A DNA stretch of 64,000 nt from Gallionella sp. Its GTDB lineage: Bacteria; Pseudomonadota; Gammaproteobacteria; Burkholderiales; Gallionellaceae. Below are positions 34,255 through 55,400 of this stretch, one piece after another. The stretch is from assembly GCA_030700315.1 (NCBI GenBank), contig JAUYJO010000033.1, positions 1-64,000 on the forward strand. Reading direction: 5' to 3'. The translations under genes were made by a program, and so were the position numbers. Below the pieces are notes generated by a model. That model had not been told where the DNA came from. It saw only the letters and a list, made by a program, of their open reading frames with translations, and made no database searches. Position 1 is the first letter of the stretch. The number at the start of each line of letters is the position of its first letter.

Positions 34255-34300
34255 CCGTCCGGCTATTATCAGTCTTCCTTTTGGGCAACAACATGGCACT

Positions 34301-36788: not shown

Positions 36789-37541
36789 CTAATAATAATC
36801 GGCTGAATTATCCTGAGGATAAAAGCCTAATTTTCTTTTTGTTTCCGTTAAATCGAACACGCTTTCAAAATTATCACTGATCGCAAATGCGGTCAGAAAT
36901 TTTTCTTCCGATTCCAGGGATTTGTCGAAAGCTTGCACCAAATCCCGTTTACTGCAAAACATGGCGCGCATATAGGCGCTATCGTAAGGGACAGGCGTAT
37001 CTACCGGCACGCTCCAACCGATACGTAGCGCAACAAAGGAGATGCCCAGATTGGCGTAATGGAAGCCCAGGTTTTCGCCAAATACTTTGGATTCGGCATA
37101 GGGGCAATCGGGGGTTGCGCAGGCATTCAGGGTGGTGAGTGTCTTTTCTTCGTGCCGCAGCGCGCTCGCGATATCCTTTTGATGGTAAAAATTTGAGCTG
37201 GCGAAAACAATTTTCTGGATGCCTGCTCTCCTTGCTTCCTCGAAGACGAAGCTGGTGGCGACGAAGTTGTTGCGTATCGTATCTGCTCTAGGGGCAGATG
37301 GATTGGGGTTGCCAGCAAGATGGATGATAGCATCCAACCCGGCAAAAACACCCTTTAATTGATTGGGTTCGGCAAAATCCAGTCGAATAAAATCAATTTG
37401 TTTTGGATTTGCGGATTTGCCCGGATCCATTCGTTTCAGGTCAAACAACTTCAGGTCAAATTTGTCCCGCAAGCCATTGACCAATGTCGTCCCGATATTT
37501 CCGCCTGCTCCGGTAATGCCTACTTTAATTTTGTTTTCCAT
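36789..37541 (-). CDS. NAD-dependent epimerase/dehydratase (extended SDR)
   Basis: A 250-aa cytoplasmic oxidoreductase. The nucleotide-binding motif GITGAGGNIGTTL is at residues 8-20. An acidic strand end (LFDLKRMD) suggests NAD rather than NADP. The catalytic pair is Tyr/Lys in PYAESKVFGE, with the Ser of FASSNFYH. The length and sequence pattern recall uronate dehydrogenase-type SDRs, so an oxidised sugar substrate is possible but not shown. It is the first gene of the minus-strand block that runs down from 52 kb. Confidence 0.85.
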   Translation of the reverse strand: MENKIKVGITGAGGNIGTTLVNGLRDKFDLKLFDLKRMDPGKSANPKQIDFIRLDFAEPNQLKGVFAGLDAIIHLAGNPNPSAPRADTIRNNFVATSFVFEEARRAGIQKIVFASSNFYHQKDIASALRHEEKTLTTLNACATPDCPYAESKVFGENLGFHYANLGISFVALRIGWSVPVDTPVPYDSAYMRAMFCSKRDLVQAFDKSLESEEKFLTAFAISDNFESVFDLTETKRKLGFYPQDNSADYY

Positions 37542-37596
37542 TGGTTAGGTGCTCTTGACAAAGTAAAGCCAAAATCGGCGTCTGAAAACGACTGCG

Positions 37597-38814
37597 TCAA
37601 CCAACTTTCAGACCGTTCACGAAATACATTTCCACCAAGCCTTTCCCTTTCACCTCCAGCTTTCCGCGCGGCTCGCATTCGAAGTATTCCTTGACCAGAT
37701 CATAGGTGGCGCGGGAAATATTCACCCGCCCCGGATCGCTCGCCGATTCCATTCTGCTGGCGGTGTTGACGGTGTCGCCCCAAACATCGTAGCTGAATTT
37801 TTTCTTCCCGATCACTCCCGCCACCAGCGGGCCGGTATGCAGGCCGATACGTTCATTCCACTCCATATTTCCTGGCAGACATTGATTGAAGGCAGCATTC
37901 TTGATGGCGTCGCGCATCTCCAAGGCTGCACGGGTAGCCATGACGGCATGGTCTGGTTGCGGAAGGGTAACGCCGCCGGCGCACATATAGGCATCGCCGA
38001 TGGTCTTGATTTTCTCCAGGCCGTACTTGTCGATAATCTGGTCGAACAGGGAGAATCTGCAATCCAGTTGCTCGATCAAATCACTGGGGGACATGGTTGA
38101 AGAAATCTGGGTGAACCCGACAAAATCCGCAAACAACACCGTGGCAGATCCGACATATACCGGATCGGCTTTGCCGGTTTTTTTTAGTTGCTGCGCGACG
38201 TTCACCGGCAGGATGTTTTCCAGCAACTTTTCCGATTCGTCGTAGGCGTCGTGGAGCAATTTCTCGAAAAATTCGTTGACGGCGAGTTGGTACTCGTTGC
38301 TCTCGGCGAACAATATCTTCCAGCCCTTTTCGGAATTGATTCCCTCGATGGAATAGACTATTTCGCGCAGCACCTCGCGCATGTTGTTTTCAAACTTTAA
38401 GAAAGTTGCGGGCGACCATTCCCGCGCGTGGTAGTCATATTTGCCGTAGATTTCGAAAATCTTGTCGTGGCATCTTTGGCGGGAATACGGATTTTCCCAA
38501 TACTTGAGCCGCAATATCCTTTCCAGAAATATGATGTTGTAGGCCTCAAAGGAAAAGGTCTTGTACTTGACACCAACCTGATTGAGCTGGTTCCACTTTG
38601 CTATGAAATTAAACGGGGCGGGCGGTGCCTGCCGGATGTCGGGGAATTCTTCCAGCAGGCGGCGGATCAATTCCTCGTTGATCTGCCGGGGACTTTTTCC
38701 ATCGAACCGGATAGGGTCAATATATTGCGATGGTTTTTCCAGTTCACCTTGCAAGTGAAGGTAAAAATATCGTGCGATTTCCCTTGCGATGATTTGACGT
38801 TCCATAATCTGCAC
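37597..38814 (-). CDS. Class III adenylate/guanylate cyclase
   Basis: A 405-aa protein. The N-terminal 190 residues are helical and unrecognised. The cyclase domain spans about 210-395: TVLFADFVGFTQISS (two metal-binding Asp), KIKTIGDAYMCAGG, and DVWGDTVNTASRMES, where the Asn/Arg transition-state residues lie. All catalytic residues appear present, so it should make cAMP or cGMP; the specificity cannot be read reliably. The start may be GTG 38814 (GAGG close upstream) or ATG 38805. It has no membrane segment, so it is soluble. Confidence 0.9.
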   Translation of the reverse strand: MQIMERQIIAREIARYFYLHLQGELEKPSQYIDPIRFDGKSPRQINEELIRRLLEEFPDIRQAPPAPFNFIAKWNQLNQVGVKYKTFSFEAYNIIFLERILRLKYWENPYSRQRCHDKIFEIYGKYDYHAREWSPATFLKFENNMREVLREIVYSIEGINSEKGWKILFAESNEYQLAVNEFFEKLLHDAYDESEKLLENILPVNVAQQLKKTGKADPVYVGSATVLFADFVGFTQISSTMSPSDLIEQLDCRFSLFDQIIDKYGLEKIKTIGDAYMCAGGVTLPQPDHAVMATRAALEMRDAIKNAAFNQCLPGNMEWNERIGLHTGPLVAGVIGKKKFSYDVWGDTVNTASRMESASDPGRVNISRATYDLVKEYFECEPRGKLEVKGKGLVEMYFVNGLKVG

Positions 38815-38857
38815 GAACCCTCAAGAGTGCATATTTTTTCAGCAGCACCGGCAGAAT

Positions 38858-39289
38858 TCAGCTTTCAAGCTGCGGAGGGTTGGCTTCATCAACATATCCC
38901 TGGTTCAGCTCGAAAATATTGCCTTCAGGGTCGGCCAGCCAGCACACTTTCATGCCGGGGATAAATTGCCCCATATCTGCGGGGCCCAGGGTCGGTTTGG
39001 CATCACTTCCCAATTCCGCCAGCTTGGCATCAAGATCGTCCACGGCAAAGCAGATATGACGCCAGCCGGGAAATTCATAGCCGCTTTTTTCCGGCGGGGG
39101 CAGGGGAGATGTCTCGGTCGCCTTGAAAAGTTCGAAGGACAGATTTCCGGAGCTGATGGCGACTACCTGATCCGGGCCGGGAGCATAGACCCTGGCACGC
39201 TTGAAGCCAAAATGTTTGGTATAGAACCTTTCGATGGCGACAGGATCTTTGCACGTCAGCCCGATGTGGGAAAAGCTGGTTGTTGTCAT
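38858..39289 (-). CDS. VOC-family (glyoxalase I-like) protein
   Basis: A 143-aa protein with two beta-alpha-beta-beta-beta repeats: FSHIGLTCKDPVAIERFYTK, where His8 is a likely metal ligand, and WRHICFAVDDLDAKLAELG; it ends WLADPEGNIFELNQGYV with Glu as a metal ligand. The metal-binding set is consistent with a glyoxalase, dioxygenase or resistance-type VOC enzyme. Nearby DJ-1-type genes would fit reactive-carbonyl detoxification. It lies 43 bases from the cyclase gene in the same direction. Confidence 0.87.
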   Translation of the reverse strand: MTTTSFSHIGLTCKDPVAIERFYTKHFGFKRARVYAPGPDQVVAISSGNLSFELFKATETSPLPPPEKSGYEFPGWRHICFAVDDLDAKLAELGSDAKPTLGPADMGQFIPGMKVCWLADPEGNIFELNQGYVDEANPPQLES

Positions 39290-39420
39290 GGGTCAACTCC
39301 TCGTTTTTGCGGTTTGTTTAGCGATGCTGCCTCTAGCGGTGTTGTACTGTCACGGCAAAATGAACAGCAGTGTTTCAGAATGTTGTTGTCTTGGCCTCTG
39401 CGATATTCCCCAAGGGGGTT

Positions 39421-39579
39421 CAGAAATTGTAAAAGTACTTTTTATGAACCTGGGGCGGGTTTCGTAGGTCGGGATTCATCCCGACAGAGCGCCGCATAAC
39501 CCAACCCCGTCGGGATGAATCCCGACCTACCTCATCGTGAGGTTCATGACCAAACGGTACGTTTGTGATTTCTGTCTCC
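39421..39579. repeat. Family C MITE-like element, ~159 bp, copy 2 (inverted)
   Basis: The reverse complement of the element at 23325-23483, with the same ends (CAGAAATTGTAAAAGTACTT; GTTTGTGATTTCTGTCTCC) and the same inner GTCGGGATGAATCCCGAC palindrome; here the inner arms are better preserved. It separates the VOC gene from the SnoaL-like gene. The remaining sequence 39290-39420 shows nothing recognised. Confidence 0.75.
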
Positions 39580-39594
39580 CCAATGTTTTTGCGG

Positions 39595-40032
39595 TCAAAG
39601 CCTGGCCGAGCCCTCATGATAATTCAGCGAATTCACGATATAGGCGGCAATGACTGCTTTGCCGGTTGGGGGCGATTTTTTTACAACCCAGGTCTGGTCG
39701 GCATCCAGCTTGATTCTGGCGCTGTTGGCTGCGGGAGGGTTCCATACGCTGGCCTGCCATTCGACGACGACATGCACATCTGCGCTGTCGCCATTTATCT
39801 TGACGGTCACTTCCTTGAGGCGATGAACTTCGTCGAAAAATATGCGGATGACTCTCTGATACCACCCTTCGAAATCCGCCAAGCCATGCAGGGTCGCTTC
39901 GGGAAATTTCATTTCCACGTTTTCTTCTGCCAGCAATGGGAGAACTTCGACCATAGGCGCGTGGACATCCAGTTTTTTATACCAGAGGGCGGCCAGATCC
40001 TTGATTTCTGATTCAGTCAATTGTGATTCCAT
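39595..40032 (-). CDS. SnoaL/NTF2-like protein
   Basis: A 145-aa protein with the alpha+beta cone of the NTF2 superfamily: an N-terminal helix pair (IKDLAALWYKKLDVHAPMVE), then NVEMKFPEATLHGLADFEGWY and the strands VTVKINGDSADVHVVVEWQA and KLDADQTWVVKKS. It has no lipobox or signal. Such proteins bind or isomerise small hydrophobic molecules; no catalytic assignment can be made. It lies 64 bases from the AGE-STAS gene and is probably in the same operon. Confidence 0.8.
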   Translation of the reverse strand: MESQLTESEIKDLAALWYKKLDVHAPMVEVLPLLAEENVEMKFPEATLHGLADFEGWYQRVIRIFFDEVHRLKEVTVKINGDSADVHVVVEWQASVWNPPAANSARIKLDADQTWVVKKSPPTGKAVIAAYIVNSLNYHEGSARL

Positions 40033-40096
40033 GATTTTCTCCAGGCAAAATTGGTGTTCGAAATAATGAAGATGAAGTTCAAAGCCTGATTTTTTC

Positions 40097-42304
40097 TTAC
40101 TCGTCCAGGAAGTCCACGCTTTCGCCGAACTCGTCCTGGTTCAGCAAGGTCTTGACCGCATCGTTCGCGCCGACGATGACCACATCATCGTCGATGTTCA
40201 GTTTCTGTTTGGCAAAAATCAGCGCCCTGGCGGCACACGAGGTCATGCTCTCCAAGCCCTTGACATCGATCACCAGTTTCTCGGGGTTGGCGGCGATCAC
40301 TTTATCCAGATTGGCCCGGAAGAAAGAGATGGCTCTCGCATCCAGGTCACCTGTCAGGGTAACGGTGGCGGTCTTGTCCTTGATCGCCACGGTGGAGTTG
40401 AAGTGGTCCAACCCTTGTGTCGGCACGATGCGCACTTTGATTTTTACCGCTTCGGTTGAGGAAGGAATTTTTACCGTCAGGCCTTCGGCGTCGAAATCGG
40501 TGTAGTCCTCGCCATTGACTGTCACAGATTCGATCCTGATCGACCCCTTGGGCAAAATGTCGGGCGAAACCCGCAGAATGTTGTCCTTGAAGCCGCCCGG
40601 CTTGGGTTTGAAATGGAAATCCATGGGCTGCTTGGCGATCATCAGGTTGGTATATACCGAGGCCAGATAGCACAGCTCAAACGAATGGTAGCCGCTCATG
40701 GAATGGCTGCCCTTGTCGCGCTCCGTGCCGAGCAGGTAGGGCATGCCGTTATTGAACACGTTGAAATACACGCCGCCAGCATCATGATCGAGGAAAAAGG
40801 CGTTATAGAAGGCGGCGGATTCGCGCGCATATTTCAGATACTCCGGCGCTTTCAGCGAACCGGCCATGATCATATACGCGAGAATGCCCTGTTCCTGTTG
40901 CCACCACGCCTTGCGGTCATGGAAAGCGAAGCGGTGGGTGGCCTGCCCTTCTTTCAGTTCGCGATCCACCACGTCGTACCAGCCGCCGCGTTGTGGGTCG
41001 CCGCCATGTTTGGGCATCAGCTCGGCGATTTTTTTGGCGAAATCGACATAGCGTTGATCCGGGTTGACGTGGTATATCCGCGTCAGGTTCCAGGCGATTT
41101 TGAGGTTGTGCCCCACCACGCCACGATTCTGCTGCCAGCCCCATTGCTGGTCGAAGCTCCAGTCTTCGTGAAATTTTTCCTGCACGAAGGCGCTGTGGTC
41201 ATAATCCTGGAAGCGTTCCGTGATGGTGTTGGCGGTGTCCACCAGCATATCCAGATGGGTTTTTTCTCCGGTGGCCAGCAACAGGTTGATCAGGTAGGCC
41301 GGGGCATGATCGCCCACCGAATTCCAGTTTTTGCGCGAGCGGTTGCGCCCCAGAGATTCGCTGCGCCCGCTGAAGGTGATCGGGTCGATATGGGAGTAAT
41401 AGCCGCCCTGTTCATGATCCCGGTAATGGCGGTCGAACAGGTTGAGCGTCATGTCGATATCCTTGCGGATGCGCACATCTCCGGTGATGCGGTAAGTCTG
41501 GGTCGGGCCGGCGAGGGCATAAATCTGCTCGTAGGCGGGAATGGCGTCGTAATCGTCGCCAAATTCCGACATGAACAGTTTGCGTTCGCGCACGGTTCTC
41601 ATCTGGCCGCCGCGCATGCCGGCAATTTCCGGCATGTTCGAGCCCAGGATTTTGCGCCCGGCCTTTTTGTTCTGGCTGAATTCGACGGCGTGATACCAGT
41701 AGCAAATATTTTCCGAAGCGTCCACTGCGCGGAAGTGTTCGCGCAGATAATCCGATCCCTTTTCGGCGGCTTCCAGGCAGCGCTCGTCACCGGTCAATAA
41801 ATACGCCGAAGCAAAGCCGTAGATCAGCCGCGAAATGGTGTCGGTTTCCTGCCGGGTGCTGCCCATTTTGTGCCCGTAGAGATCGAGCATGGTGCAGTAA
41901 TTGGACCAGTCGATTTCATCATCGCCAAACTGCGCCTTGAGGTAGAAATTGGCCAGTTGCTGGATCTGTTTGATCCACCAATCCTGCTGCTCGAAGACAA
42001 ACTCGTTCTCGCCTTTTCCGACGAAAATCAGGTGTTCGGCTTCCAGCGCGCCATCGTCGTCGGGATAGAACACGCCATACGCATAAATGAATCTGCCGCG
42101 GGCGAGCATGTCGCGCATCTGCCCGGTGCAATCCACATAGGAATCGCCGAGATTATGCACCAGCTCTGCATAGGTCGAAGAAGATAGCCTGATCTTGAAA
42201 TCACGGCCATCCGAGGTCTGGATTCCAAATATATTGGAATCGAAACTGAAGTTGGTTACATACCCGGCAACGGTGTCGGAAAACTCGAAATTGGTCTGTC
42301 CCAT
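40097..42304 (-). CDS. AGE-fold (N-acylglucosamine 2-epimerase-like) protein fused to a STAS domain
   Basis: A 735-aa fusion. Residues 1-110 form a beta-rich domain of unknown type (FEFSDTVAGYVTNFSFDSN...). Residues about 120-520 form an (alpha/alpha)6 barrel like AGE-family sugar epimerases, with repeated W/H/E-rich blocks (NWNSVGDHAPAYLINLLLAT; WQQNRGVVGHNLKIAWN; AWWQQEQGILAYMI). About 530-620 is a beta linker. Residues about 630-735 are a STAS domain (VTLTGDLDARAISFFRANLD; LVIDVKGLESMTSCAARALI) with Ser/Thr where anti-sigma-factor antagonists are phosphorylated. It has no signal peptide. A sugar-binding enzyme fold tied to a partner-switching domain suggests a sugar-responsive regulator. 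This is inference. Confidence 0.85.
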   Translation of the reverse strand: MGQTNFEFSDTVAGYVTNFSFDSNIFGIQTSDGRDFKIRLSSSTYAELVHNLGDSYVDCTGQMRDMLARGRFIYAYGVFYPDDDGALEAEHLIFVGKGENEFVFEQQDWWIKQIQQLANFYLKAQFGDDEIDWSNYCTMLDLYGHKMGSTRQETDTISRLIYGFASAYLLTGDERCLEAAEKGSDYLREHFRAVDASENICYWYHAVEFSQNKKAGRKILGSNMPEIAGMRGGQMRTVRERKLFMSEFGDDYDAIPAYEQIYALAGPTQTYRITGDVRIRKDIDMTLNLFDRHYRDHEQGGYYSHIDPITFSGRSESLGRNRSRKNWNSVGDHAPAYLINLLLATGEKTHLDMLVDTANTITERFQDYDHSAFVQEKFHEDWSFDQQWGWQQNRGVVGHNLKIAWNLTRIYHVNPDQRYVDFAKKIAELMPKHGGDPQRGGWYDVVDRELKEGQATHRFAFHDRKAWWQQEQGILAYMIMAGSLKAPEYLKYARESAAFYNAFFLDHDAGGVYFNVFNNGMPYLLGTERDKGSHSMSGYHSFELCYLASVYTNLMIAKQPMDFHFKPKPGGFKDNILRVSPDILPKGSIRIESVTVNGEDYTDFDAEGLTVKIPSSTEAVKIKVRIVPTQGLDHFNSTVAIKDKTATVTLTGDLDARAISFFRANLDKVIAANPEKLVIDVKGLESMTSCAARALIFAKQKLNIDDDVVIVGANDAVKTLLNQDEFGESVDFLDE

Positions 42305-42372
42305 CTTAAATCTCCTTAAATATAGCTTGGTAATATTGGCAATATTGTCCCGACTCTAGATTGGTATAGCCC

Positions 42373-43200
42373 CTAGATTGGTATATTGGTGTACGAAAGG
42401 GAAAGGTTAAACGTGCCCGTGTCTCCTGGGGCTGTGGGGTTAAATTCGAACTTCACTATTCCGATATCGGGATATATGTATTGCACCCTGTCAGAGATAA
42501 GGCTGCCCTCCATACCCGGATCCTGATTTACGTCGATGAAACTCATCTTGGAGGCTTCAAACGTGCCGATGGGCACCGATACGTTCTCTTTTGCACTAAC
42601 CGCAGTATTCAAGACACCCTGGTGGGTGAGCGCGCCATCTACCGTCTTTTTTAGATAGGTGACTTGCCGGGTGTCGTTGATGTTGAGCGGCATCTGGTAC
42701 TGCACGTAGTTCTTCGGCGTGTCGAACCAGTATCTGTTGTAGATTGTGTTTCCGGAGTCATCTACGCCCTCTGGCAATCCGTCGCCTTGATAATTTATCG
42801 TGCCAGTCAACGGGTCCTGGATGTAATAGCGATAAACCGTACTCACCACAGTAGCAGGGGTCACCTTGCCTGCCGGGTCGATCATCTGAGCGTTGTAATA
42901 CTGTGCCTCGACAAGCGTCATTACCTTGATATTGTTGTTCAGGGGGTTGGTTAAACCCTCGTCGATTACATCAAGGCTTAAGCGGCCTCCCGTGATAACT
43001 GTCTTCGAGCCGTCGGCGTGGATATATTCCCCGACCGCGTCGTATATCATGACGTCGCCGTTTTTATAAATTACGTTATTGGCGCTTTTGCTGTAATAAA
43101 TGCGCGTGCCCGGGCTGTCCGAGCCACCGTTACATCCCACGAGGGACAGAATAATTAAAACAGCCCAAAAACCTTTAAGCGACAGAATGAACTTGTTCAT
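42373..43200 (-). CDS. Predicted outer-membrane or periplasmic lipoprotein
   Basis: A 275-aa protein with a lipoprotein signal (MNKFILSLKGFWAVL...) and lipobox LVGC, so Cys23 would be lipidated; the +2 Asn does not specify inner-membrane retention. The mature part is beta-rich, with no recognised domain. It lies between the AGE-STAS and MBL-fold genes, in step with a signal-bearing barrel protein two genes upstream, so the block has an envelope component. Confidence 0.75.
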   Translation of the reverse strand: MNKFILSLKGFWAVLIILSLVGCNGGSDSPGTRIYYSKSANNVIYKNGDVMIYDAVGEYIHADGSKTVITGGRLSLDVIDEGLTNPLNNNIKVMTLVEAQYYNAQMIDPAGKVTPATVVSTVYRYYIQDPLTGTINYQGDGLPEGVDDSGNTIYNRYWFDTPKNYVQYQMPLNINDTRQVTYLKKTVDGALTHQGVLNTAVSAKENVSVPIGTFEASKMSFIDVNQDPGMEGSLISDRVQYIYPDIGIVKFEFNPTAPGDTGTFNLSLSYTNIPI

Positions 43201-43252
43201 AATTGTTTCCTTGTTTGGATAACACTAGAAAACCGCCATTTTGTTACAGGAA

Positions 43253-44101
43253 TTACACCACCCCGTTCTTCCTTAACAGAGCGATCGTCTTGTCCATTTC
43301 GTAAGTCAGCAGGAAGAGCGTTTTATCGTTGGGCAGGAAAGACTGCATTTTCCCGACGAGCGCGTTTTTCTCATCCTCGTTCAATGAGCTCTTTCCTTTC
43401 AGCATCGACTTCAGTATGCCGATGAAAGCCTGTATGTAGGCGCGATGCCAGTAGACGATTTCTATGCCGCAGGGGTCTCCGTGGCAGGTATAGAGCGATG
43501 TCGTATGGTCGTATTGGTCAAGGAGGCGGTCAAGGTTTTTGAGCCACTCAATGGCGTGGCCGTCTCTGAAGAAGCAGTGCATGTGGTTATGGATTATGTC
43601 GCCCAGAAAGACGTGTTTGATGCCGTCGATGTCCAGCGACCACGCCGTGTCGTCGTCCGACTCGCCGGGGCCATAGTCGGTAAGCAGGAAATTTACACCG
43701 TCAAAAGTATGGGTTTCTCCGCCTTTGACCACCTTGTTGGGGAATATCCTCTTTTTGGGGAACTCGTCGCCGAATATTTGCAGGGCGATAGGCTCTTTTT
43801 CCTTGTCTTCTGACATGGCAAAATCTATCGCGCCCTGTGTGGCCAGTATCGGCACGTCCAGCCCCTTGGTGAGTTCCGCGAGGCCGGTGAAATGATCCGG
43901 GTGGCCATGCGTCACCAGGACAGCCAGCAAGGGCTTTTTAATCTTGTCGTCGATCATCGAGCGCAGCGTTCTGCTTGAAGAAACGGCGAGCGTCGCGTCG
44001 ATAGCCACCACCCCGTTTTTTGTCTCCACTAAAAATGCGTTGACGAAGAAGTTCGAAACAGTCGCTTCGTATCTATGTATTACTGGCGTGAAATTTTCCA
44101 T
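43253..44101 (-). CDS. MBL-fold metallo-hydrolase
   Basis: A 282-aa protein with the metallo-beta-lactamase core. The metal motif is LVTHGHPDHFTGLAEL (HxHxDH); later ligands are in YGPGESDDDTAWSLDID (Asp), VFLGDIIHNHMHCFF (Asp) and YTCHGDPCGIE (His). It has no signal peptide, so it is cytoplasmic. The family includes glyoxalase II-like, quorum-lactone and sulfur enzymes; the subfamily is not clear. It lies 43-52 bases from its neighbours in the same operon. Confidence 0.85.
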   Translation of the reverse strand: MENFTPVIHRYEATVSNFFVNAFLVETKNGVVAIDATLAVSSSRTLRSMIDDKIKKPLLAVLVTHGHPDHFTGLAELTKGLDVPILATQGAIDFAMSEDKEKEPIALQIFGDEFPKKRIFPNKVVKGGETHTFDGVNFLLTDYGPGESDDDTAWSLDIDGIKHVFLGDIIHNHMHCFFRDGHAIEWLKNLDRLLDQYDHTTSLYTCHGDPCGIEIVYWHRAYIQAFIGILKSMLKGKSSLNEDEKNALVGKMQSFLPNDKTLFLLTYEMDKTIALLRKNGVV

Positions 44102-44144
44102 TGTTTATCTCCTTGGTTGGTAGGTATGTTGGTATTTGGATTTT

Positions 44145-45215
44145 TTATTGAAACGTCATTTTCAGGCCGGTGGATAGCATGGTGTCCCTTTTCTTCAACC
44201 ATGCCCAGGGGATGTTGTCGTATTTGATCTGATAGGCGCCAAAGAATGAGATGTTGTCGGTAATCATTGCGTTGAGGCCTACATCGACTGTCATCAGGTT
44301 GCGGTAATGTGTGCCGTCATTGAAGAGATTGCCGGAAGCATCAAGCTGGAGCCGATCGACCTTGTTGAAGGAATGTATCCACATCAACTTTTCGTTAAAG
44401 GTTATATATTCGTTGATCTTCCAGTCGTAGGTCTGGTTGAGATACAGGGTATCGAAGTTTCTGTTCATGAAACCCAGCCAGGTCTGGATATCCGAAGCAT
44501 ATCTTTCGTTAAGGTAGCCATAGGCCAGCAGGGCGCTTAATTTATGGTCATCCAAAGTAAGCAGCCTATAGCCGAGCCCGCCATAAACAGCGTAGCGCCG
44601 GTCGACGAGCAGGGCGCTGTTCTTTTCCCAGATAAAGCCCACATCCCCATAAAAGTTCTCTGTGATGTCGTACTTGAGCGTGTCTTCGAACATCCTCTGG
44701 TCTTTTTTGTAGTGGTAGTTCATGGAGTTGATGTCCGTGTTGCTGTTGTCCAGCGTGAAGGCCAGGGAGTTGGTGTACCTTCCCTTCCGCGTATCCCATC
44801 TGGCATAGATAAGGTTGGCATGTGAGCTGGCATTCCCCGTGTAACCCATGAAGCTGTACTTGAACTCGCCACGGTTGAGCCATTCCGAGGGCCGGGGATC
44901 ATAGCTGAGTGAGCTTTTATTCCACCAGTCGCCGAGGTCGTTTTTCTTGGGGGTGGCCTCCGCTGCTGCGGGCGGAGTTTTGGCCTCGGCAGGTTTTTCC
45001 TGGGCCAGAGTTTGGGCTTGAGGTTGGGCTTGCAACTTTTTGGCGGCCTCCATTCCCTCTTTGAATATCTGCTCGTAAGCCGCAGGGTAGTGTTCCTTGA
45101 TATAGTTCAGGTCTACCGCTTTATCTTCAGCACGCGCGCCGGGCATACACAATAAAGATAGAGTCATGGCAATAATCGAGGCTGGCGCAACTCTTTTGCT
45201 TCCCTTGCTGGTCAT
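44145..45215 (-). CDS. DUF481-like outer-membrane beta-barrel protein
   Basis: A 356-aa protein. It has a signal peptide (about residues 1-29, ending PGARAE) and an Ala/Pro/Gln-rich disordered segment (about 55-90). A barrel of about 270 residues follows with regular alternating strands (GEFKYSFMGYTGNASSHANL; YGDVGFIWEKNSALLVDRRY) and ends KMTFQ. DUF481-type proteins are outer-membrane proteins of unknown function. The ATG at 45215 is chosen because GGGAGG lies 7 bases upstream; the TTG two codons earlier is less likely. Confidence 0.8.
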   Translation of the reverse strand: MTSKGSKRVAPASIIAMTLSLLCMPGARAEDKAVDLNYIKEHYPAAYEQIFKEGMEAAKKLQAQPQAQTLAQEKPAEAKTPPAAAEATPKKNDLGDWWNKSSLSYDPRPSEWLNRGEFKYSFMGYTGNASSHANLIYARWDTRKGRYTNSLAFTLDNSNTDINSMNYHYKKDQRMFEDTLKYDITENFYGDVGFIWEKNSALLVDRRYAVYGGLGYRLLTLDDHKLSALLAYGYLNERYASDIQTWLGFMNRNFDTLYLNQTYDWKINEYITFNEKLMWIHSFNKVDRLQLDASGNLFNDGTHYRNLMTVDVGLNAMITDNISFFGAYQIKYDNIPWAWLKKRDTMLSTGLKMTFQ

Positions 45216-45243
45216 TCTCAATCCTCCCAGATTGCACTTTTAA

Positions 45244-45354
45244 CCCAGATAATCCATTGGGGCGTAGGTCGGGCTTCAGCCCGACATGTCGGGTTAAAAC
45301 CCGACCTACAACCCATTGATTTTCAATGCCCCAATAGCTAATGAACTATCTGGG
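45244..45354. repeat. Family B MITE-like element, 111 bp
   Basis: Ends CCCAGATAATCCATT and AATGAACTATCTGGG, inner hairpin GTAGGTCGGGCTTCAGCCCG plus GGGTTAAAACCC. It is almost identical in length and order to the copies at 20431-20542 and 51209-51320. It lies between the SnoaL-like genes (upstream in transcription) and the barrel gene, so it may split this block into two transcripts. Confidence 0.82.
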
Positions 45355-45371
45355 TTTAAGCTGGATGCAGC

Positions 45372-45752
45372 TCAGTCCAATTTCTGCTCGGTAAATGGCT
45401 TGAACGGAACCGTGTCGTGGAAGTTCGCCATGTAGGTGATCTTGCCGTCTTTGACCCTGAAGAAATTGGCGCCTTTTGCGCTAATCGGCACGCCGGCAGC
45501 ATTGGCGGCATCGATACGCCACACGATCATCGCCCGGTCGCCATCGACCACGATCTCAAGCGGGGTGTTCTGGAATTTGGAGTAGCCCTTCTTCAGCGCC
45601 CCGACAGCGCCACGGAGAATTTCCACACCCTCGACGTGCCCGGCCAATTGTTCGTCCATCACCACTTTATCGTCGAACAGCGCGAGCCATGCGTCCCAAT
45701 CGCCCCGGTTCACGCTATCGAAATATCTGGTTACGACCTCTCTGGTGTCCAT
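45372..45752 (-). CDS. SnoaL-like protein
   Basis: A 126-aa NTF2-fold protein of the SnoaL/ketosteroid-isomerase-like type, starting VVTRYFDSVNRGDWDAWLAL, with FDDKVVMDEQLAGHVEGVEI and the closing strand KDGKITYMANFHDTVPF. It may be an enzyme or a binding protein for a small molecule; no catalytic dyad can be assigned with confidence. It is the last of three neighbouring SnoaL-like genes, 17 bases after the preceding one. Confidence 0.85.
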   Translation of the reverse strand: MDTREVVTRYFDSVNRGDWDAWLALFDDKVVMDEQLAGHVEGVEILRGAVGALKKGYSKFQNTPLEIVVDGDRAMIVWRIDAANAAGVPISAKGANFFRVKDGKITYMANFHDTVPFKPFTEQKLD

Positions 45753-45769
45753 TCCTGCCTCCTGTGGTT

Positions 45770-46168
45770 TTATACGGCGAGTTTGCCGGTTTCCATCTGC
45801 TGGTATATTTTCATCTCGCTATCAGGCGGGATGGTGAGCGCAATGTGCCTGAATATTTTTTTGTCCTTGAGGAAGAGGGCGTCGCGAGCCACGAAAATTC
45901 CCAGTTTCTCGGACTGGATCGAACAGACAAAGATGATGACATCGTCGGACTCGGAAAAATGGTGCATCTGCATGCCCAGAATTTTTCCGGCCTTGGCCGG
46001 TTCATCCACCGAGAGATACTTCTTAATGGCATCGGCTCCTTTGCACGTAAATTCGAACGTGACCATTTCAGCATCGGCGTGATACTGGTTTTTCATAAGG
46101 CCGTCGTAATCGCCGCTGGTCAGATACCCAACCTGCTCCTGTAAAAATTGCTCTCCGAATGTAGCCAT
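45770..46168 (-). CDS. SnoaL/NTF2-like protein
   Basis: A 132-aa protein with FLQEQVGYLTSGDYDGLMKNQ, then YHADAEMVTFEFTCKGADAIK and the strand pair IIFVCSIQSEKLGIFVARDALFLKD. It aligns over its length with the next gene upstream (46227-46610), sharing the GYxxxGDxxGLxKNxYHxDAxMVTF pattern, so the two are paralogues from a local duplication. Function unknown; partner or substrate is likely shared with its paralogue. Confidence 0.82.
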   Translation of the reverse strand: MATFGEQFLQEQVGYLTSGDYDGLMKNQYHADAEMVTFEFTCKGADAIKKYLSVDEPAKAGKILGMQMHHFSESDDVIIFVCSIQSEKLGIFVARDALFLKDKKIFRHIALTIPPDSEMKIYQQMETGKLAV

Positions 46169-46226
46169 CTATGCCTCCATTTATGATTGTTTACGTTTTG
46201 CATTTGCTCTTTCCGACGTTTACAGC

Positions 46227-46610
46227 TTATTCATCCTTCCACTTTGTGCACTGTTTTTCATAGTCGAAGCCGGGCAGTAATGTCAGGGACAGATGGCGGT
46301 ATATTTTGCCGTCTTTCAAGTACAGGGCATTGTCGGCGTGAACCGTGCCGCGCTTGTCGTCAGTGATGGTTGCCTTGAAAATGATCGAGTCTCCGGTCTC
46401 GCAGAAATAGTCTGTCGACAGGCCGGTGATCTTTCCCATCGAGGCCAGCGTGTTGACGTAATATTGCCTGAGTTCGTCATGCCCGCTTCTTACCCCGTCG
46501 AAAGTAACCATCACGGCATCTTCGTGGTAATGGTTTTTAAGGAGACCCTCTATGTCTCCTTTTCCCACATAGCCGAGCTGGTCGAGGTAAAACTTTTTCC
46601 CTGGTGTCAT
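46227..46610 (-). CDS. SnoaL/NTF2-like protein, paralogue of the next gene
   Basis: A 127-aa protein counted from the third of three consecutive ATGs, which is the best spaced (7 bases) from GGAG. It carries FYLDQLGYVGKGDIEGLLKN, HYHEDAVMVTFDGV and the strand DKRGTVHADNALYLKDGKI. It is clearly homologous to the 45770-46168 product. It starts about 37 bases after glgX in the same direction, so the two SnoaL-like paralogues sit at the tail of a run that begins with the ThDP enzyme. Confidence 0.82.
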   Translation of the reverse strand: MTPGKKFYLDQLGYVGKGDIEGLLKNHYHEDAVMVTFDGVRSGHDELRQYYVNTLASMGKITGLSTDYFCETGDSIIFKATITDDKRGTVHADNALYLKDGKIYRHLSLTLLPGFDYEKQCTKWKDE

Positions 46611-46647
46611 CATCATTCTCCTTTTGATTGGTGTTTCATAAATGCGA

Positions 46648-48747
<2,100 letters not shown>

Positions 48748-48756
48748 GGCGATCTC

Positions 48757-49332
48757 CTATACGGCGTTCAAACGCTGAAGAATGGCACGCGCCAGCAAAT
48801 GCGCGTGATTGCCGGTGCGCGCGGTAATCAAGTCGCCATCTTCCACCAGATCCTGGTCGACGAATTCTGCGCCATAAGCCAGCGCATCACCGTGAAGATT
48901 GTTGTGGCAAGTCAACTTGCGTCCCTTTACCAACCCTGGAACCGGCGCGGTCAACCACAGCCCGTGACAGATGATGCCCTTGATGACCTGGGGGCGCTGG
49001 AAAGCGCGTTGCAGAAAGGCGCTGGCGGGTGGAATCTTGGCTAAGTCTTCGGTATAGCGCAGACGGTCGGACACGATGCCGGAGGGCACGATCACCGCCG
49101 CCAGGTTGTCCAGTTCCGCATCGGAGATGGTTTCAAAGCTGTCGCGACACTCGAACGGCGCCTTGTATTCATGCCCGGTAAAAGTGATGTGATCCTGACC
49201 CCACAGGCGCGAAACGAAGCGCGCCTTTACGCCGCTTTCCGCGAAGCGCGAGTGGTAGTACCAGACCTCGTGTTCGTAATAGTCGCTTTCGATCAGAATG
49301 GCTACGGTTTTTTCTGGGGTTTTTTCTGGCAT
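48757..49332 (-). CDS. DJ-1/PfpI-family protein
   Basis: A 191-aa cytoplasmic protein from the ATG at 49332, which has AGGAGGAATTACGTC before it; a much longer open frame upstream lacks a start signal and runs into the next gene. It has the alpha/beta core VAILIESDYYEHEVWYYH and the nucleophile elbow GIICHGLWLTAP (Cys of CHG). The family includes proteases, chaperones and glyoxalase III-type or deglycase enzymes. The neighbours (a ThDP decarboxylase and glgX) suggest a role in carbonyl or sugar-derived stress. Confidence 0.88.
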   Translation of the reverse strand: MPEKTPEKTVAILIESDYYEHEVWYYHSRFAESGVKARFVSRLWGQDHITFTGHEYKAPFECRDSFETISDAELDNLAAVIVPSGIVSDRLRYTEDLAKIPPASAFLQRAFQRPQVIKGIICHGLWLTAPVPGLVKGRKLTCHNNLHGDALAYGAEFVDQDLVEDGDLITARTGNHAHLLARAILQRLNAV

Positions 49333-49355
49333 GACGTAATTCCTCCTGGTTATTT

Positions 49356-51059
49356 CTAGTGCCCGCAATGCACAGAGATTTGATCGGGATGAACATCGCC
49401 TTCTATAGCGACATCGAGCAGGAACGGGCCGCGATGCGCCAGTGCTGCCTCTATCGCCGGAATGATCTGCCCGGCGGTTTCGACGCGCATCGCTTTCACG
49501 CCCATGGATTCGGCCATGGCGTCGAAACGCAGGGGCGGAGAAGACAGGTCGAAGCTGATGGGGAAGGGGCGATGGGCGATTTTCTGCTCGTTCCAGAACT
49601 GCTGGATGTTGAGCTGCAGCAAACGGTAGGAGCGGTTGTTGCAGATCACGTATTTGACATCGAGATTGTGGCGCACCGCCGACCACAATGCCTGGATCAC
49701 ATACATCGCGCCGCCGTCGCCGGAAAATGCGAATACGGTTTTATCCGGGAACGCCGCCTTGAGCCCGAGTCCGCCCGCCAGCCCGGTGCCGAGCGATCCG
49801 CCACGGGTCTGGAAAAATGTGCCAACCCGATTCGGCGGGAAATAGCGCGTCAACGCCGGCGAGTTGGTCAGCGCCTCGTCGAACACCACCGTGTCGGTGG
49901 GCAGGCGTTGCGCCAATTGCGCCATGAAGCGCGCGAAGGTGAGCGGCAGGGTGTCGCCGCGCGCGTTGTCCTGCTCGATTTCGCGTTGCCGCTGCTGTGC
50001 TTTCGCCGCGCCCAGCTCCGCCATGCGTTTGGCGGAGCGTTCCCGCGTTGCCGGAGCGAGGCGCGGTTCGAGCGCTTCCGCCAGCGCAGCCAGCGTAGTT
50101 TTCGGGTCGGTTACCAACCCCAGCGTCACCTGGTGGTTTTTGGCGATAGCGTCGGGGTCGAGGTCGATGTGGATGGTTTGCGCGCCGCCAGCATAAATAT
50201 CGCCGAGCTCCGGGAAAACTTCGGGCAGCATGTAGGTGCCGACCACCAGGTTGACATCGCCGCGCCGCGTGATCGCCAGGCTTTGGCTGCCGAACATGTG
50301 GCCGGTTTGGCCCTGCCACAGCGGATGGCCGTAGGGAAGATTGAGCTCGCCGCTATCCACTCCCCACACCTCTGCGCCGAGCAGTTCCGCCACCCGCGCC
50401 AGTTCGGCCTGTGCGCCCGAATACGCGACACCGTCGCCGACATAAATCATCGGCGTGGCCGCACCGGTCAGCATGTCGGCGGCGCTGTCGATCAAGCCCT
50501 GCTGCGGCAGGGAGCGGGAAGAAGGAAAAGAACTCGGAAAAACCGCCTCGCACGCCAGTTCGTCGAGGATGTCCTGCGGCAGGCACACATAAACCGGCCC
50601 CATCGGCGGCGTGACCGCCACTTTCATCGCGCGCCGCAGAACGCGCAGCAGCGAGGAGGGGTGCTGCACCATGGTCGACCATTTGGTGACCGGCCGCGCC
50701 ATCGCCACCAGATCGGCGGCCATCTGCGCGTCCATCGCCTGGTAACGTATCCCGGAATCGCCGCCCAGCACCAGCATCGGGCTATGGCCGCGCTTCGCCT
50801 GATAAAGCGCGCCGATGGCATTGCCGAGTCCGGGTGAACTGTGTATCTGTGCCACCGCTACCCGTTGGGTCGCGCGGGCGTAGGCATCTGCCGCCAGGAT
50901 GGCGACGGATTCCTGTAGCGTCAGAATGTATCGGATAGAGGGGAAATCGCCCAGCGCATCGAGGAAGCCTTGTTCGACTGTTCCCGGATTGCCGAAAATA
51001 TGATCCACGCCATCCGCTGCGAGTTGCTCCAACACGGCGTAATGTCCACTCCGGGCCAT
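49356..51059 (-). CDS. Thiamine diphosphate-dependent enzyme (acetolactate synthase/benzoylformate decarboxylase type)
   Basis: A 567-aa protein. The N-terminal pyrimidine-binding domain contains the catalytic Glu in LTLQESVAILAADAYAR. The central domain lies at about 190-340. The C-terminal PP-binding domain has the ThDP motif SGDGGAMYVIQ...ICNN (GDG-x about 25-NN). No FAD-binding signature of acetolactate synthase is clear, and the sequence is more like 2-keto-acid decarboxylases. The substrate cannot be told. It is the first of a tight run with the DJ-1 gene (23 bases) and glgX. Confidence 0.9.
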   Translation of the reverse strand: MARSGHYAVLEQLAADGVDHIFGNPGTVEQGFLDALGDFPSIRYILTLQESVAILAADAYARATQRVAVAQIHSSPGLGNAIGALYQAKRGHSPMLVLGGDSGIRYQAMDAQMAADLVAMARPVTKWSTMVQHPSSLLRVLRRAMKVAVTPPMGPVYVCLPQDILDELACEAVFPSSFPSSRSLPQQGLIDSAADMLTGAATPMIYVGDGVAYSGAQAELARVAELLGAEVWGVDSGELNLPYGHPLWQGQTGHMFGSQSLAITRRGDVNLVVGTYMLPEVFPELGDIYAGGAQTIHIDLDPDAIAKNHQVTLGLVTDPKTTLAALAEALEPRLAPATRERSAKRMAELGAAKAQQRQREIEQDNARGDTLPLTFARFMAQLAQRLPTDTVVFDEALTNSPALTRYFPPNRVGTFFQTRGGSLGTGLAGGLGLKAAFPDKTVFAFSGDGGAMYVIQALWSAVRHNLDVKYVICNNRSYRLLQLNIQQFWNEQKIAHRPFPISFDLSSPPLRFDAMAESMGVKAMRVETAGQIIPAIEAALAHRGPFLLDVAIEGDVHPDQISVHCGH

Positions 51060-51208
51060 ATTATCTCCTTTGTTGAAAAGCTATATATTGCGTTAACAAT
51101 GAAACAACTCGAAATCCCGCAGGCTCACCTTTTCAGGGTGGGCAAACAACCCCCTTTGAAAAAGGGGGTGGAGCGAAGCGGAGGGGGATTTCTTGTTACA
51201 TCATTCAA

Positions 51209-51320
51209 CCCGGATAATCCATTAGGCCGTAGGTCGGGCTTCAGCCCGACATGTCGGGTTAAAACCCGACCTACAACCCATTGATTTTGCAATGCCTCAA
51301 GAGCTAATGGATTATCTGGG
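51209..51320. repeat. Family B MITE-like element, 112 bp
   Basis: The cleanest copy: ends CCCGGATAATCCATT and AATGGATTATCTGGG with the shared inner hairpins. It fills most of the gap between the ThDP enzyme's start and the larger DJ-1 gene, so the ThDP gene's promoter would have to lie in or next to it. A CCCCCTTTGAAAAAGGGGG palindrome lies just before it (about 51150-51170). Confidence 0.82.
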
Positions 51321-51365
51321 TTCAAGGCCAATGCAAAGCCTGTTTAGTGCTGCATCAGCGCGGTA

Positions 51366-52199
51366 TCACCAGCCCGAACGTTTCAACCCCTTGGTCAGCA
51401 CATCGACAAACCGCTCGCCGAATTCATGGGCGCATTGCAGCGACCTGGCGGTGATGAAAGGGTAGTCGACTATGACAGAAGTGCGCTTGCCGAAATTGCC
51501 GTGATATTGGCCGCTTGGCCCAACCGCGTCGGCGAGGATATATTCGAGCACATAAGGCGGCGGGCCCATGTTGAAATTGGTGCCGCAGAAACCCGTGCCA
51601 TCGTGGTAATCGTATTCGATACAGTGGCCGGTGACATGCTTGCCGGCGATAATCGCGTTGCGCTCGTTGAAGTCGCGGGCGAACACCAGCGTCGCCACGC
51701 CGTAACAAATCGCGCCGACCGGCCTGCCGGCGGCGTGGAAACCCAGCACCAGATCATGCACCCGCTGGTTGTTGACGATATCGACTATCGGGCCGCTGCC
51801 GCCGACCAGCAATATCGCGTCGTAATCCGCCACCGCCTTCTCCTGGGCAAGGCGGCGCTGCTCGTAATAAGCCTCGAACTGGCGCAGGAAGTTGTCGCTG
51901 CTGAAGTAAGGCCTTTCCGGGAACATTGCCGAAAGGTTCAGCGTTTTGTCGAGCTGGTTGGTTTTTTCGAAGGCCTTGACCAGCTCGGCATCTTCGGGAG
52001 TGGTGACGCATACGCCCAACGGCGGGTCCATATAGCTGGGGTCGGTGCTTGGCGGTAGAACTGGGGAGCGTTTCCCCTTGGGGGTGACAAAATCAAATTC
52101 ATAACCGGCTGCCACCAGTTTATTGAGCGGGCCGACCAGCTCGATACCCCAATACCCCCACTCGGACATGACAGCAAGAATGCGCTTTTTGGTTCCCAT
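51366..52199 (-). CDS. DJ-1/PfpI-family protein, Hsp31-like long form
   Basis: A 277-aa protein, longer than the first DJ-1-type protein by an insertion (about 90-125) typical of Hsp31/glyoxalase III-like members. It has ILAVMSEWGYWGIELVGPLN at the start, ILLVGGSGPIVDIV, and the nucleophile elbow GAICYGVATLVFA. Methylglyoxalase or chaperone activity is possible. It is first in the minus-strand block that continues through the ThDP gene, separated from it by a family B repeat. The ~210 bases upstream hold no recognised feature. Confidence 0.87.
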   Translation of the reverse strand: MGTKKRILAVMSEWGYWGIELVGPLNKLVAAGYEFDFVTPKGKRSPVLPPSTDPSYMDPPLGVCVTTPEDAELVKAFEKTNQLDKTLNLSAMFPERPYFSSDNFLRQFEAYYEQRRLAQEKAVADYDAILLVGGSGPIVDIVNNQRVHDLVLGFHAAGRPVGAICYGVATLVFARDFNERNAIIAGKHVTGHCIEYDYHDGTGFCGTNFNMGPPPYVLEYILADAVGPSGQYHGNFGKRTSVIVDYPFITARSLQCAHEFGERFVDVLTKGLKRSGW

Positions 52200-53338: not shown

Positions 53339-53374
53339 GATGTCAGCTTAACGTAAAATCGCGCAGCGATTCGT

Positions 53375-53466
53375 TCGCCCCTTCCCTCGCTTGCGGGGGA
53401 AGGTTGGGATGGGGGAAACGGGCATGGCGGGTTTCATTATCAGGGGCGGCATATTTTCCATGCCCG
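53375..53466. repeat. Palindromic G/C-tract repeat, partial family A
   Basis: It contains CCCCTTCCCTCGCTTGCGGG with its complement GGGGGAAGG and ends ATTTTCCATGCCCGTT, matching the CATGCCCGTT end of the family A elements. It separates the double-receiver gene from the degenerate HD-GYP gene. Confidence 0.55.
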
Positions 53467-53467
53467 T

Positions 53468-54787: not shown

Positions 54788-54831
54788 GCTTCCTCCCCAG
54801 TTAAAATGAGCAACGGTATTGCGTGGTTGAT

Positions 54832-55155: not shown

Positions 55156-55400
55156 AGTTTGACCCCGAGTCGTTCGATTGCCAGCAACACTTGTTTTACC
55201 TGATAAGCCTTGGCCATGCCTTTGTCATTCTGAATGTTGATACGCGGATCACCCTGCCACGGCGTCCGGTATATCGAATGGCTGCCACCGTGATGCCGGG
55301 GCTTGCCGAAATATGCCTCACAGACTTTTTGCAATTCGCCGAAGCTTACATTGGCCGGTTCACGCCGCATTTGCTCGAGGATTTTTTCGGTTTTAGGCAT
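55152..55400 (-). CDS. hicA: HicA-family toxin
   Basis: An 82-aa small dsRBD-like RNase: the N-terminal helix KTEKILEQMRREP, then YFGKPRHHGGSHSIYRTPWQ with the catalytic His of GGSH, and VKQVLLAIERLG at the end. It is slightly longer than the minimal HicA. It precedes hicB with a 4-base overlap and looks intact. The pair is inserted between two HD-GYP regulator genes. Confidence 0.88.
   Translation of the reverse strand: MPKTEKILEQMRREPANVSFGELQKVCEAYFGKPRHHGGSHSIYRTPWQGDPRINIQNDKGMAKAYQVKQVLLAIERLGVKL

What the first reader, a model, noticed from the sequence alone, without database searches (positions are those of the whole stretch)
36789..52199. Unusual minus-strand block joining glycogen breakdown, carbonyl-stress-type enzymes, SnoaL proteins and envelope parts
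Seen: about 15 co-directional genes with short gaps: Hsp31-like DJ-1, ThDP enzyme, DJ-1, GlgX, three SnoaL-like proteins, barrel, MBL hydrolase, lipoprotein, AGE-STAS, SnoaL-like, VOC, nucleotide cyclase, epimerase. Inference: a coordinated response to reactive carbonyls or sugar-derived metabolites, or a small-molecule pathway. No described system with this gene set comes to mind.
Basis: partly seen in the sequence, partly recalled or inferred. Interest (0 to 1): 0.65.

Follow-up and report, generated by a model that had tools for sequence, protein, structure and literature searches.

The report
Mobile glycogen-and-stress gene cluster, rewired
A block of sugar-breakdown and stress-type enzymes that has spread between very different bacteria looks like a rebuilt relative of the cyanobacterial icfG carbon-control cluster, with part of its signalling switch fused onto one of the enzymes, which suggests what that switch may normally control.

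Summary
The 15-gene minus-strand block is real and is not strain-specific. Its AGE protein recurs in 49 other loci under 12 phylum labels, six of them on plasmids. Of all 50 loci, 48 carry GlgX (always on AGE's strand), 42 AGE+GlgX+DJ-1, and 21 the whole core with ThDP and Hsp31-like. None of 149 relatives has AGE, and each flank matches genus-mates, so the block was probably acquired.

The loci fall into two architectures. The 21 'split' loci resemble icfG (free STAS proteins, RsbW-type kinase in 20). The 29 'fused' loci, window included, have STAS joined to AGE and no such kinase or SpoIIE-type phosphatase detected nearby. The fused STAS resembles the second STAS (29 of 29); its phospho-acceptor position is lost in 20 of 29 but kept in all 37 free STAS counted.

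I read this as a hard-wired partner switch: STAS acts on the AGE/GlgX sugar step rather than only on a sigma factor. AGE also carries an invariant Lys where two solved relatives have Glu. A carbonyl-stress role is plausible but untested. Four of the 15 genes look local. New variant of a known kind.

The parts
51366..52199 (-). Hsp31-like DJ-1/ThiJ protein (frequent partner); Cys165 and Glu20 conserved, with Tyr166 after the Cys
   Evidence: Pfam ThiJ_like 1.3e-22; in 25 of 50 loci, best hits all on AGE's strand; conserved residues
49356..51059 (-). ThDP enzyme of the benzoylformate-decarboxylase / acetolactate-synthase superfamily
   Evidence: Pfam; best PDB hits benzoylformate decarboxylases; below the cut-off of all 25 NCBIfam models shown of 54; in 26 of 50 loci; pairwise identities track Hsp31, rho 0.80
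48757..49332 (-). DJ-1/PfpI protein with Cys-His motif; start corrected from 49686
   Evidence: Pfam 1.7e-16 on the longer ORF; start; DJ-1 in 43 of 50 loci, but only 23-32% identical in a number of them, Paenibacillus, Nitrospirota and several cyanobacteria among them
46648..48747 (-). GlgX glycogen debranching enzyme, the only CBM48 and only alpha-amylase (GH13) match found in the assembly
   Evidence: NCBIfam TIGR02100 710.3 bits, cut-off 640.9; D347, E384, D462 conserved (catalytic roles recalled)
46227..46616 (-). NTF2/SnoaL-like protein 1
   Evidence: SnoaL_2 26.3 bits, cut-off 27; relatives in some loci
45770..46168 (-). NTF2/SnoaL-like protein 2 (no Pfam match; resembles protein 1 by eye)
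45372..45752 (-). NTF2/SnoaL-like protein 3
   Evidence: SnoaL_2 3.1e-20; hits in L015, L017, L034, L036, L042, L045, L050, L052
44145..45221 (-). DUF481 outer-membrane barrel (probably local)
   Evidence: Pfam 6.6e-15; no hit in the other loci
43253..44101 (-). metallo-beta-lactamase-fold hydrolase
   Evidence: Pfam 1.4e-13; hits in L004, L015, L029, L050 at 29-42% identity
42373..43200 (-). lipoprotein, DUF3108-like (probably local)
   Evidence: Pfam 2.2e-6; no hit outside the window's own DNA; lipobox read from the sequence
40097..42304 (-). AGE-STAS fusion: OB-fold (about 1-100), AGE (alpha/alpha)6 barrel (about 100-556), beta region, STAS (about 635-733)
   Evidence: model pLDDT 82.6, pTM 0.86; AGE superfamily Z up to 34.2; OB-fold Z up to 9.6; Pfam STAS 2.4e-11
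39595..40032 (-). NTF2/SnoaL-like protein 4, the most widely shared of the four
   Evidence: weak SnoaL_2 match E 0.0038; hits in 15 fetched loci other than the window's own
38858..39289 (-). VOC metalloenzyme-like protein
   Evidence: Pfam Glyoxalase 4.1e-11; VOC in 18 of 50 loci, best hits all on AGE's strand
37597..38814 (-). class III nucleotide cyclase (probably local)
   Evidence: Pfam 2.7e-55; no hit outside the window's own DNA
36789..37541 (-). SDR epimerase/dehydratase-like protein (probably local)
   Evidence: Pfam Epimerase 7.1e-18; one hit elsewhere, L030, opposite strand
35891..36706 (-). bestrophin-like membrane channel, possibly the 3' end of the island
   Evidence: Pfam 2.9e-51; relatives in the AGE loci L007 (52%) and L013 (30%), and L033 on the other strand; not found in the three genus-mate stretches that hold the flank gene

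Best explanation
The block is a probably horizontally acquired cassette related to the cyanobacterial icfG carbon-regulation cluster. SHOWN: AGE and GlgX, usually with DJ-1, form a co-directional core, often with Hsp31-like, ThDP, VOC and NTF2/SnoaL proteins; icfG-like loci carry free STAS proteins and an RsbW-type kinase, often with a SpoIIE-type phosphatase; in the window's class a STAS most like the second one is fused to AGE, no such kinase or phosphatase was detected nearby, and the phospho-acceptor is often lost. INFERRED: in the icfG type, the unphosphorylated second STAS binds the AGE-like enzyme (and perhaps GlgX) and sets the rate of alpha-glucan use; in the window the fusion makes this link permanent. 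INFERRED: GlgX debranches glycogen made by the host's GlgA and consumed by its phosphorylases; the AGE-like enzyme converts or senses the freed sugar; DJ-1, Hsp31-like, VOC and ThDP proteins handle reactive aldehydes and dicarbonyls that arise; the NTF2 proteins do small isomerisation or dehydration steps.
For: 43 genome loci and 20 plasmid records, 17 covering at least 80%, match the AGE protein; gene order read for 6 of those 20 plasmids, five phyla. 50 loci: 29 fused, 21 split. Kinase in 20 of 21 split (the miss, L027, is cut by the contig end) and 0 of 29 fused; SpoIIE in 15 split and 0 fused. With at least 9 kb on both sides: kinase in 17 of 17 split and 0 of 15 fused. No fused locus has a free STAS. 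Fused STAS scores higher with the STAS2 than the STAS1 profile in 29 of 29; acceptor Ser in 37 of 37 assigned free STAS, but Ser 8 and Thr 1 of 29 fused. icfG gene list and biochemistry: passages. AGE absent from 149 relatives (the one other listed match, G143, covers only the STAS region); at E <= 1e-50 in 3 of 397 other genomes of the phylum, 42-50% identical. Flanks match genus-mates. Host has one GlgA-type match and three phosphorylase ORFs.
Against: The window's own STAS keeps the acceptor Ser (MTSCAAR), and its genome has a single-domain HATPase_c_2 match and five SpoIIE matches elsewhere, so phospho-control in trans is possible. Two fused loci (L047, L048) have a cNMP-binding histidine kinase near AGE. 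Fused versus split needs 1-2 changes on the tree, and only 58% of bootstrap trees put each on one side of a single branch. Identities of AGE correlate poorly with those of GlgX, DJ-1, ThDP, Hsp31 and VOC (rho 0.24 to 0.0), so genes are exchanged between cassettes. 17 of 50 loci have none of Hsp31, ThDP, VOC, NTF2 or GMC. The window has the widest AGE-GlgX gap of all, 4.3 kb, against under 1 kb in 46 of 48. No genus-mate with both flanks joined was seen. I found no expression or biochemical data for this genome. Fusion suggests interaction but does not prove it.
Confidence: 0.55

Rival explanations
1. The block makes a small molecule from sugar: the ThDP enzyme joins 2-keto acids or aldehydes, NTF2/SnoaL proteins cyclise or dehydrate, GMC or VOC enzymes oxidise, and GlgX/AGE supply the sugar.
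For: Up to eight NTF2 hits per locus, with GMC oxidoreductase in 11 and EthD proteins in 7 of 50 loci; ThDP fold of carboligases/decarboxylases.
Against: Accessory enzymes vary widely between loci and are missing from 17 of 50, whereas a biosynthetic route should be kept whole.
Confidence: 0.2
2. Carbonyl/solvent-stress detoxification is the main job, and GlgX/AGE only supply reducing power or remove glycated glucans.
For: DJ-1 in 43 of 50 and Hsp31-like in 25 of 50 loci; conserved Cys and Glu; slr1853/slr1854 listed in an ethanol-response table and slr1854 induced by butanol (passages).
Against: Hsp31-like has Tyr where glyoxalase III proteins have His (the latter recalled); the icfG operon is known for glucose and inorganic-carbon phenotypes and is salt-repressed.
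Confidence: 0.15
3. The AGE domain is a sugar sensor rather than an enzyme, and STAS passes its state to a partner kept elsewhere. (This can hold together with the best explanation.)
For: Lys402 (25 of 25 aligned) lies at the Glu of the GHxxE motif of two solved AGE-family enzymes, and Gln391 at Asp254 of glucose 2-epimerase; Glu251 of YihS is 4.4 A from substrate C2 (passage); OB-fold and STAS are added.
Against: The histidine of that motif is kept and the protein is highly conserved, which also fits an enzyme with altered chemistry.
Confidence: 0.25
4. Unrelated genes gathered by chance in an island next to a defence locus.
For: DUF481, lipoprotein, cyclase and SDR genes are essentially not shared; a Wadjet-type locus adjoins.
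Against: The core recurs, same-strand, under 12 phylum labels.
Confidence: 0.05

Closest known systems
icfG gene cluster (slr1852-slr1862), Synechocystis sp. PCC 6803
   Same: AGE protein (Slr1855), GlgX-type enzyme (Slr1857) and STAS antagonists (Slr1856, Slr1859) in one operon (passages); Slr1854 is called general stress protein 18 (passage), which I recall as a DJ-1/PfpI type.
   Different: Window has one STAS, fused to AGE; no RsbW-type kinase (Slr1861) or SpoIIE-type phosphatase (IcfG) detected in the block; adds Hsp31-like, ThDP, VOC and NTF2 genes.
AGE superfamily sugar 2-epimerases/isomerases (8h1k glucose 2-epimerase, 5x32 D-mannose isomerase, YihS)
   Same: (alpha/alpha)6 barrel, Z 27.6-34.2 for the superfamily rows; motif histidine kept.
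   Different: Glu of GHxxE is Lys402, Asp254 equivalent is Gln391 (25 of 25); extra OB-fold and STAS domains.
SpoIIAA/RsbV anti-sigma factor antagonists
   Same: STAS domain; the A1 profile matches SpoIIAA at E 1.3e-4.
   Different: Fused to an enzyme-like protein; acceptor Ser/Thr absent in 20 of 29 fused proteins.
Benzoylformate decarboxylase family (ThDP)
   Same: Best solved relatives, near full-length alignment.
   Different: Below the cut-off of all 25 NCBIfam models shown; substrate unknown.

Membership tests
icfG-type gene cluster | AGE protein and GlgX close together on one strand | tested here: met
   same strand in 48 of 48 loci with GlgX; in the window six genes and 4.3 kb lie between them, the widest gap of the set
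icfG-type gene cluster | DJ-1/PfpI-type gene in the operon | tested here: met
   43 of 50 loci; that Slr1854 is of this type is recalled
icfG-type gene cluster | two separate STAS antagonist proteins | tested here: not met
   only one STAS, fused to AGE
icfG-type gene cluster | RsbW-type HATPase kinase in the operon | tested here: not met
   0 hits in the 23 kb of window searched; one single-domain match elsewhere in the genome
icfG-type gene cluster | SpoIIE-type phosphatase (IcfG) in the operon | tested here: not met
   0 hits in the same stretch; five matches elsewhere in the genome
icfG-type gene cluster | glucose / inorganic-carbon growth phenotype | not testable with these tools
   needs mutants
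AGE superfamily epimerase/isomerase | (alpha/alpha)6 barrel | tested here: met
AGE superfamily epimerase/isomerase | active-site acid of the GHxxE motif | tested here: not met
   Lys402 in 25 of 25; position of this Glu from a passage of PMC6333288
AGE superfamily epimerase/isomerase | motif histidine (GH) | tested here: met
   His399 in 25 of 25
GlgX debranching enzyme | NCBIfam TIGR02100 above cut-off, catalytic Asp/Glu/Asp | tested here: met
   710.3 bits against 640.9; D347, E384, D462 (catalytic roles recalled)
Anti-sigma factor antagonist (phospho-regulated STAS) | conserved phospho-acceptor Ser | tested here: inconclusive
   Ser present in the window protein (MTSCAAR) but no Ser/Thr in 20 of 29 fused relatives
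Benzoylformate decarboxylase | NCBIfam equivalog score | tested here: not met
   283.6 bits against cut-off 493

The most novel reading that the evidence does not exclude
In icfG-type systems the partner switch controls a sugar enzyme directly: STAS2 (Slr1859-like) docks on AGE (Slr1855-like), itself a lysine-bearing AGE relative with new chemistry or a sensing role. The fused proteins found here, under eight phylum labels in all, are natural 'always-docked' versions freed from kinase and phosphatase.
Probability: 0.35. Interest if true: 0.75.

Novelty: new variant of a known kind. Interest (0 to 1): 0.5.

Why it matters
The icfG operon has been studied since 1994, yet a 2025 paper still lists the target sigma factors of its STAS proteins Slr1856 and Slr1859 as unknown (passages). 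The fusion, the missing kinase and phosphatase, and the eroded acceptor site point to a concrete, testable candidate target: the AGE-like enzyme next door. If true, it would add a metabolic enzyme to the outputs of bacterial partner switches, and show that a carbon-handling module moves between phyla.

Tried and rejected
Phage origin: no match among 50,697 phage records and one 70-residue fragment in IMG/VR; dropped. Mirror-tree test of the cassette as one inherited unit: AGE against the others gave rho 0.24 to 0.0; only ThDP-Hsp31 reached 0.80, so 'moves as one frozen block' was dropped. The automatic FUSED column is wrong, because my AGE profile contained STAS; architecture was reassigned by tail length. 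Three of the 29 fused proteins (L026, L044, L046) miss the STAS profile at 1e-5 and were placed by tail length; they score 21.7-42.1 bits with the STAS2 profile. Left out of the count of 37 free STAS: fragments over 200 aa and five not placeable as STAS1 or STAS2 (one in L027, two each in L030, L031), which also show Ser there by eye. A wider, iterated kinase/phosphatase search gave kinase hits in 20 and SpoIIE hits in 20 split loci (the latter may include receiver domains), and two weak hits in fused loci: a cNMP-binding histidine kinase in L048 (a like one is in L047) and a response regulator in L047. Promoter scan: 13 found against 11.8 expected, not used; terminator-like sites 34 against 19.6, not interpreted. 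Base composition of the island is not uniform (0.50-0.60), so it was not used as transfer evidence. An empty site was not shown: the two flanks were seen in different genus-mates. Papers joining the gene set: searches found none; Shi 1999 is not held and is known to me here only through other papers. Phylum labels come from record titles; some MAGs may be mis-binned (L009 is labelled Bifidobacterium breve). The window's own organism has no name here.


Full report
OBSERVATION. The 15 minus-strand genes are present at the stated coordinates. Gaps are 9-68 bp except 306, 150 and 305 bp. The DJ-1 gene most likely starts at 49332. Pfam supports the named families, but only one of the four SnoaL-like proteins passes a cut-off; the others are sub-threshold, weak or unmatched.

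IT IS WIDESPREAD, NOT LOCAL. A pattern scan with the AGE-STAS protein gave 43 loci in species genomes; tblastn gave 20 plasmid records, 17 covering at least 80% of it. I read annotation for 6 of those 20 plasmids, from five phyla (Nostoc, Gloeothece, Gemmobacter, Deinococcus, Streptomyces, Runella). With the window this makes 50 loci; the 49 others bear 12 phylum labels, three rows unlabelled. Families were scored with profiles built from these loci. GlgX is in 48 of 50; the misses, L005 and L027, are cut by contig ends on GlgX's side. DJ-1 is in 43, ThDP 26, Hsp31-like 25, NTF2 19, VOC 18 and GMC 11. AGE, GlgX and DJ-1 occur together in 42, and all five core families in 21 (10 fused, 11 split). 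The best hit per locus of GlgX, DJ-1, ThDP, Hsp31-like and VOC is always on AGE's strand, against 107 of 197 for other ORFs at least 5 kb away. GMC is on it in 9 of 11. In a number of loci the DJ-1 protein is only 23-32% identical to the window's, so it may be another member of the family. DUF481, lipoprotein, cyclase and SDR are unique or nearly so to the window.

IT WAS PROBABLY ACQUIRED. AGE is missing from the 149 relatives searched; the one other listed match, in G143, covers only the STAS part. At E <= 1e-50 it is in 3 of 397 other genomes of the phylum, at 42-50% identity, two of the three matches covering only about 360 residues. Window genes 52412-61984 match genus-mate G020, and 25942-35743 match G021 and G039. 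The two flanks were seen in different genomes, so an empty site is not shown, but both flanks look native. The AGE tree groups the window with three betaproteobacterial MAGs, then Nitrospinota and Nitrospirota rows.

THE KNOWN RELATIVE. Passages of PMC12329169 and PMC8670252 describe the Synechocystis icfG operon slr1852-slr1862: Slr1855 AGE, Slr1856 and Slr1859 antagonists, Slr1857 isoamylase/GlgX, IcfG phosphatase and Slr1861 kinase. Slr1861 phosphorylates Slr1856 and Slr1859; IcfG dephosphorylates Slr1856 but not Slr1859; mutants have glucose and carbon phenotypes; target sigma factors of Slr1856 and Slr1859 are called unknown, while Slr1861 itself is an anti-SigC factor. So a sigma-factor output exists in Synechocystis, and my reading adds an enzyme target rather than replacing it. 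Slr1853 is called carboxymuconolactone decarboxylase (passage) and Slr1854 general stress protein 18 (passage). Cyanobacterial loci here have DJ-1, AGE, STAS, GlgX and kinase in this order (L024, L028, L037). Synechocystis sequence itself was not available.

TWO ARCHITECTURES. 21 loci are split (AGE, STAS1, GlgX, STAS2, kinase, often SpoIIE) and 29 fused (GlgX, then AGE-STAS). The kinase is in 20 of 21 split and 0 of 29 fused; SpoIIE in 15 split and 0 fused. With at least 9 kb on both sides the kinase is in 17 of 17 and SpoIIE in 13 of 17 split loci, against 0 of 15 fused. No fused locus has a free STAS. A wider, iterated search gave two weak hits in fused loci; L047 and L048 have a cNMP-binding histidine kinase near AGE. 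The fused STAS scores higher against STAS2 than STAS1 in 29 of 29. At the acceptor position, free STAS have Ser in 18 of 18 (STAS1) and 19 of 19 (STAS2); fused have Ser 8, Thr 1, and Pro, Asp, Ala, Glu, Lys or Arg in 20. The window keeps Ser.

STRUCTURE. The AGE-STAS model has pLDDT 82.6 and pTM 0.86. The barrel matches AGE-superfamily enzymes: Foldseek best glucose 2-epimerase, E 4.7e-14; Z 34.2, rmsd 2.7, 376 aligned, D-mannose isomerase. The N-terminal domain alone (pLDDT 88.2) matches OB-folds, Z 9.6 at best. The profile alignment puts Lys402 at the Glu of GHxxE in two solved enzymes and Gln391 at Asp254 of glucose 2-epimerase; both are invariant in the 25 proteins aligned, of 50 loci. A passage of PMC6333288 places this Glu (YihS Glu251) 4.4 A from substrate C2, and also reports disagreement on which residues are the catalysts. 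So the fold is AGE; standard epimerase chemistry is doubtful.

HOST. The assembly has a single CBM48 and a single alpha-amylase-family match, both the island GlgX, one GlgA-type match and three phosphorylase ORFs. So the host may make and use alpha-glucan and have gained its only GH13 debranching enzyme with the island. The assembly is about 95% complete with 5% contamination, and GH57-type branching enzymes were not searched.

MECHANISM. I favour a hard-wired partner switch on an alpha-glucan step, with DJ-1/Hsp31/VOC/ThDP proteins cleaning or using reactive by-products. The first part is inferred from fusion, gene absence and acceptor loss; the second from family membership only. Metabolite, target and stress are unknown.

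VERDICT. A new variant of a known kind: a widespread core related to icfG, with local genes added in this genome.

Noticed in passing
25942-35743: A Wadjet-type defence locus (JetD, JetC, JetB, JetA) adjoins the island. JetA and JetB, contiguous in genus-mates L089 and L090, are here separated by about 3.1 kb carrying a PDC-M06B candidate defence protein (33727-34254) and a PIN-domain protein.
   Followed up: partly
52412-61984: Native signalling cluster of response regulators, HD-domain response regulators and PAS/hybrid histidine kinases upstream of the island; conserved in genus-mates.
   Followed up: partly
344-2995: A phosphorylase-family ORF at the start of the window, one of three in the assembly.
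   Followed up: no
L047:20501-23637, L048:17472-20553: Next to the fused AGE-STAS of two cyanobacterial plasmids lie a flavoprotein oxidoreductase (with a receiver domain in the one scanned, L047) and a cNMP-binding histidine kinase; the window has a nucleotide cyclase instead, so cyclic nucleotides may recur as input.
   Followed up: partly
L016:12279-13325, L007:10033-10893, L047:9042-9851: Different membrane channels sit in or beside the cassette: a pentameric ligand-gated-channel-like protein, a bestrophin and an aquaporin, hinting at an osmotic or ionic role.
   Followed up: no
L037:5672-7153, L007:2971-4209, L011:6475-7527: Ankyrin-repeat proteins recur in the cassettes; in L037 one carries a SnoaL_2 domain at its N-terminus.
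   Followed up: no
L030, L031, L038, L039, L040: A diverged ThDP (550 aa) plus Hsp31-like pair, only about 23-34% identical to the window pair, is also linked to AGE/GlgX.
   Followed up: no
L004:11475-13865, L029:13600-15504: The two nearest relatives with long flanks end in different secreted or outer-membrane genes (a weak Alginate_exp match; GDSL lipase and OmpW), so envelope cargo varies at the same end.
   Followed up: partly
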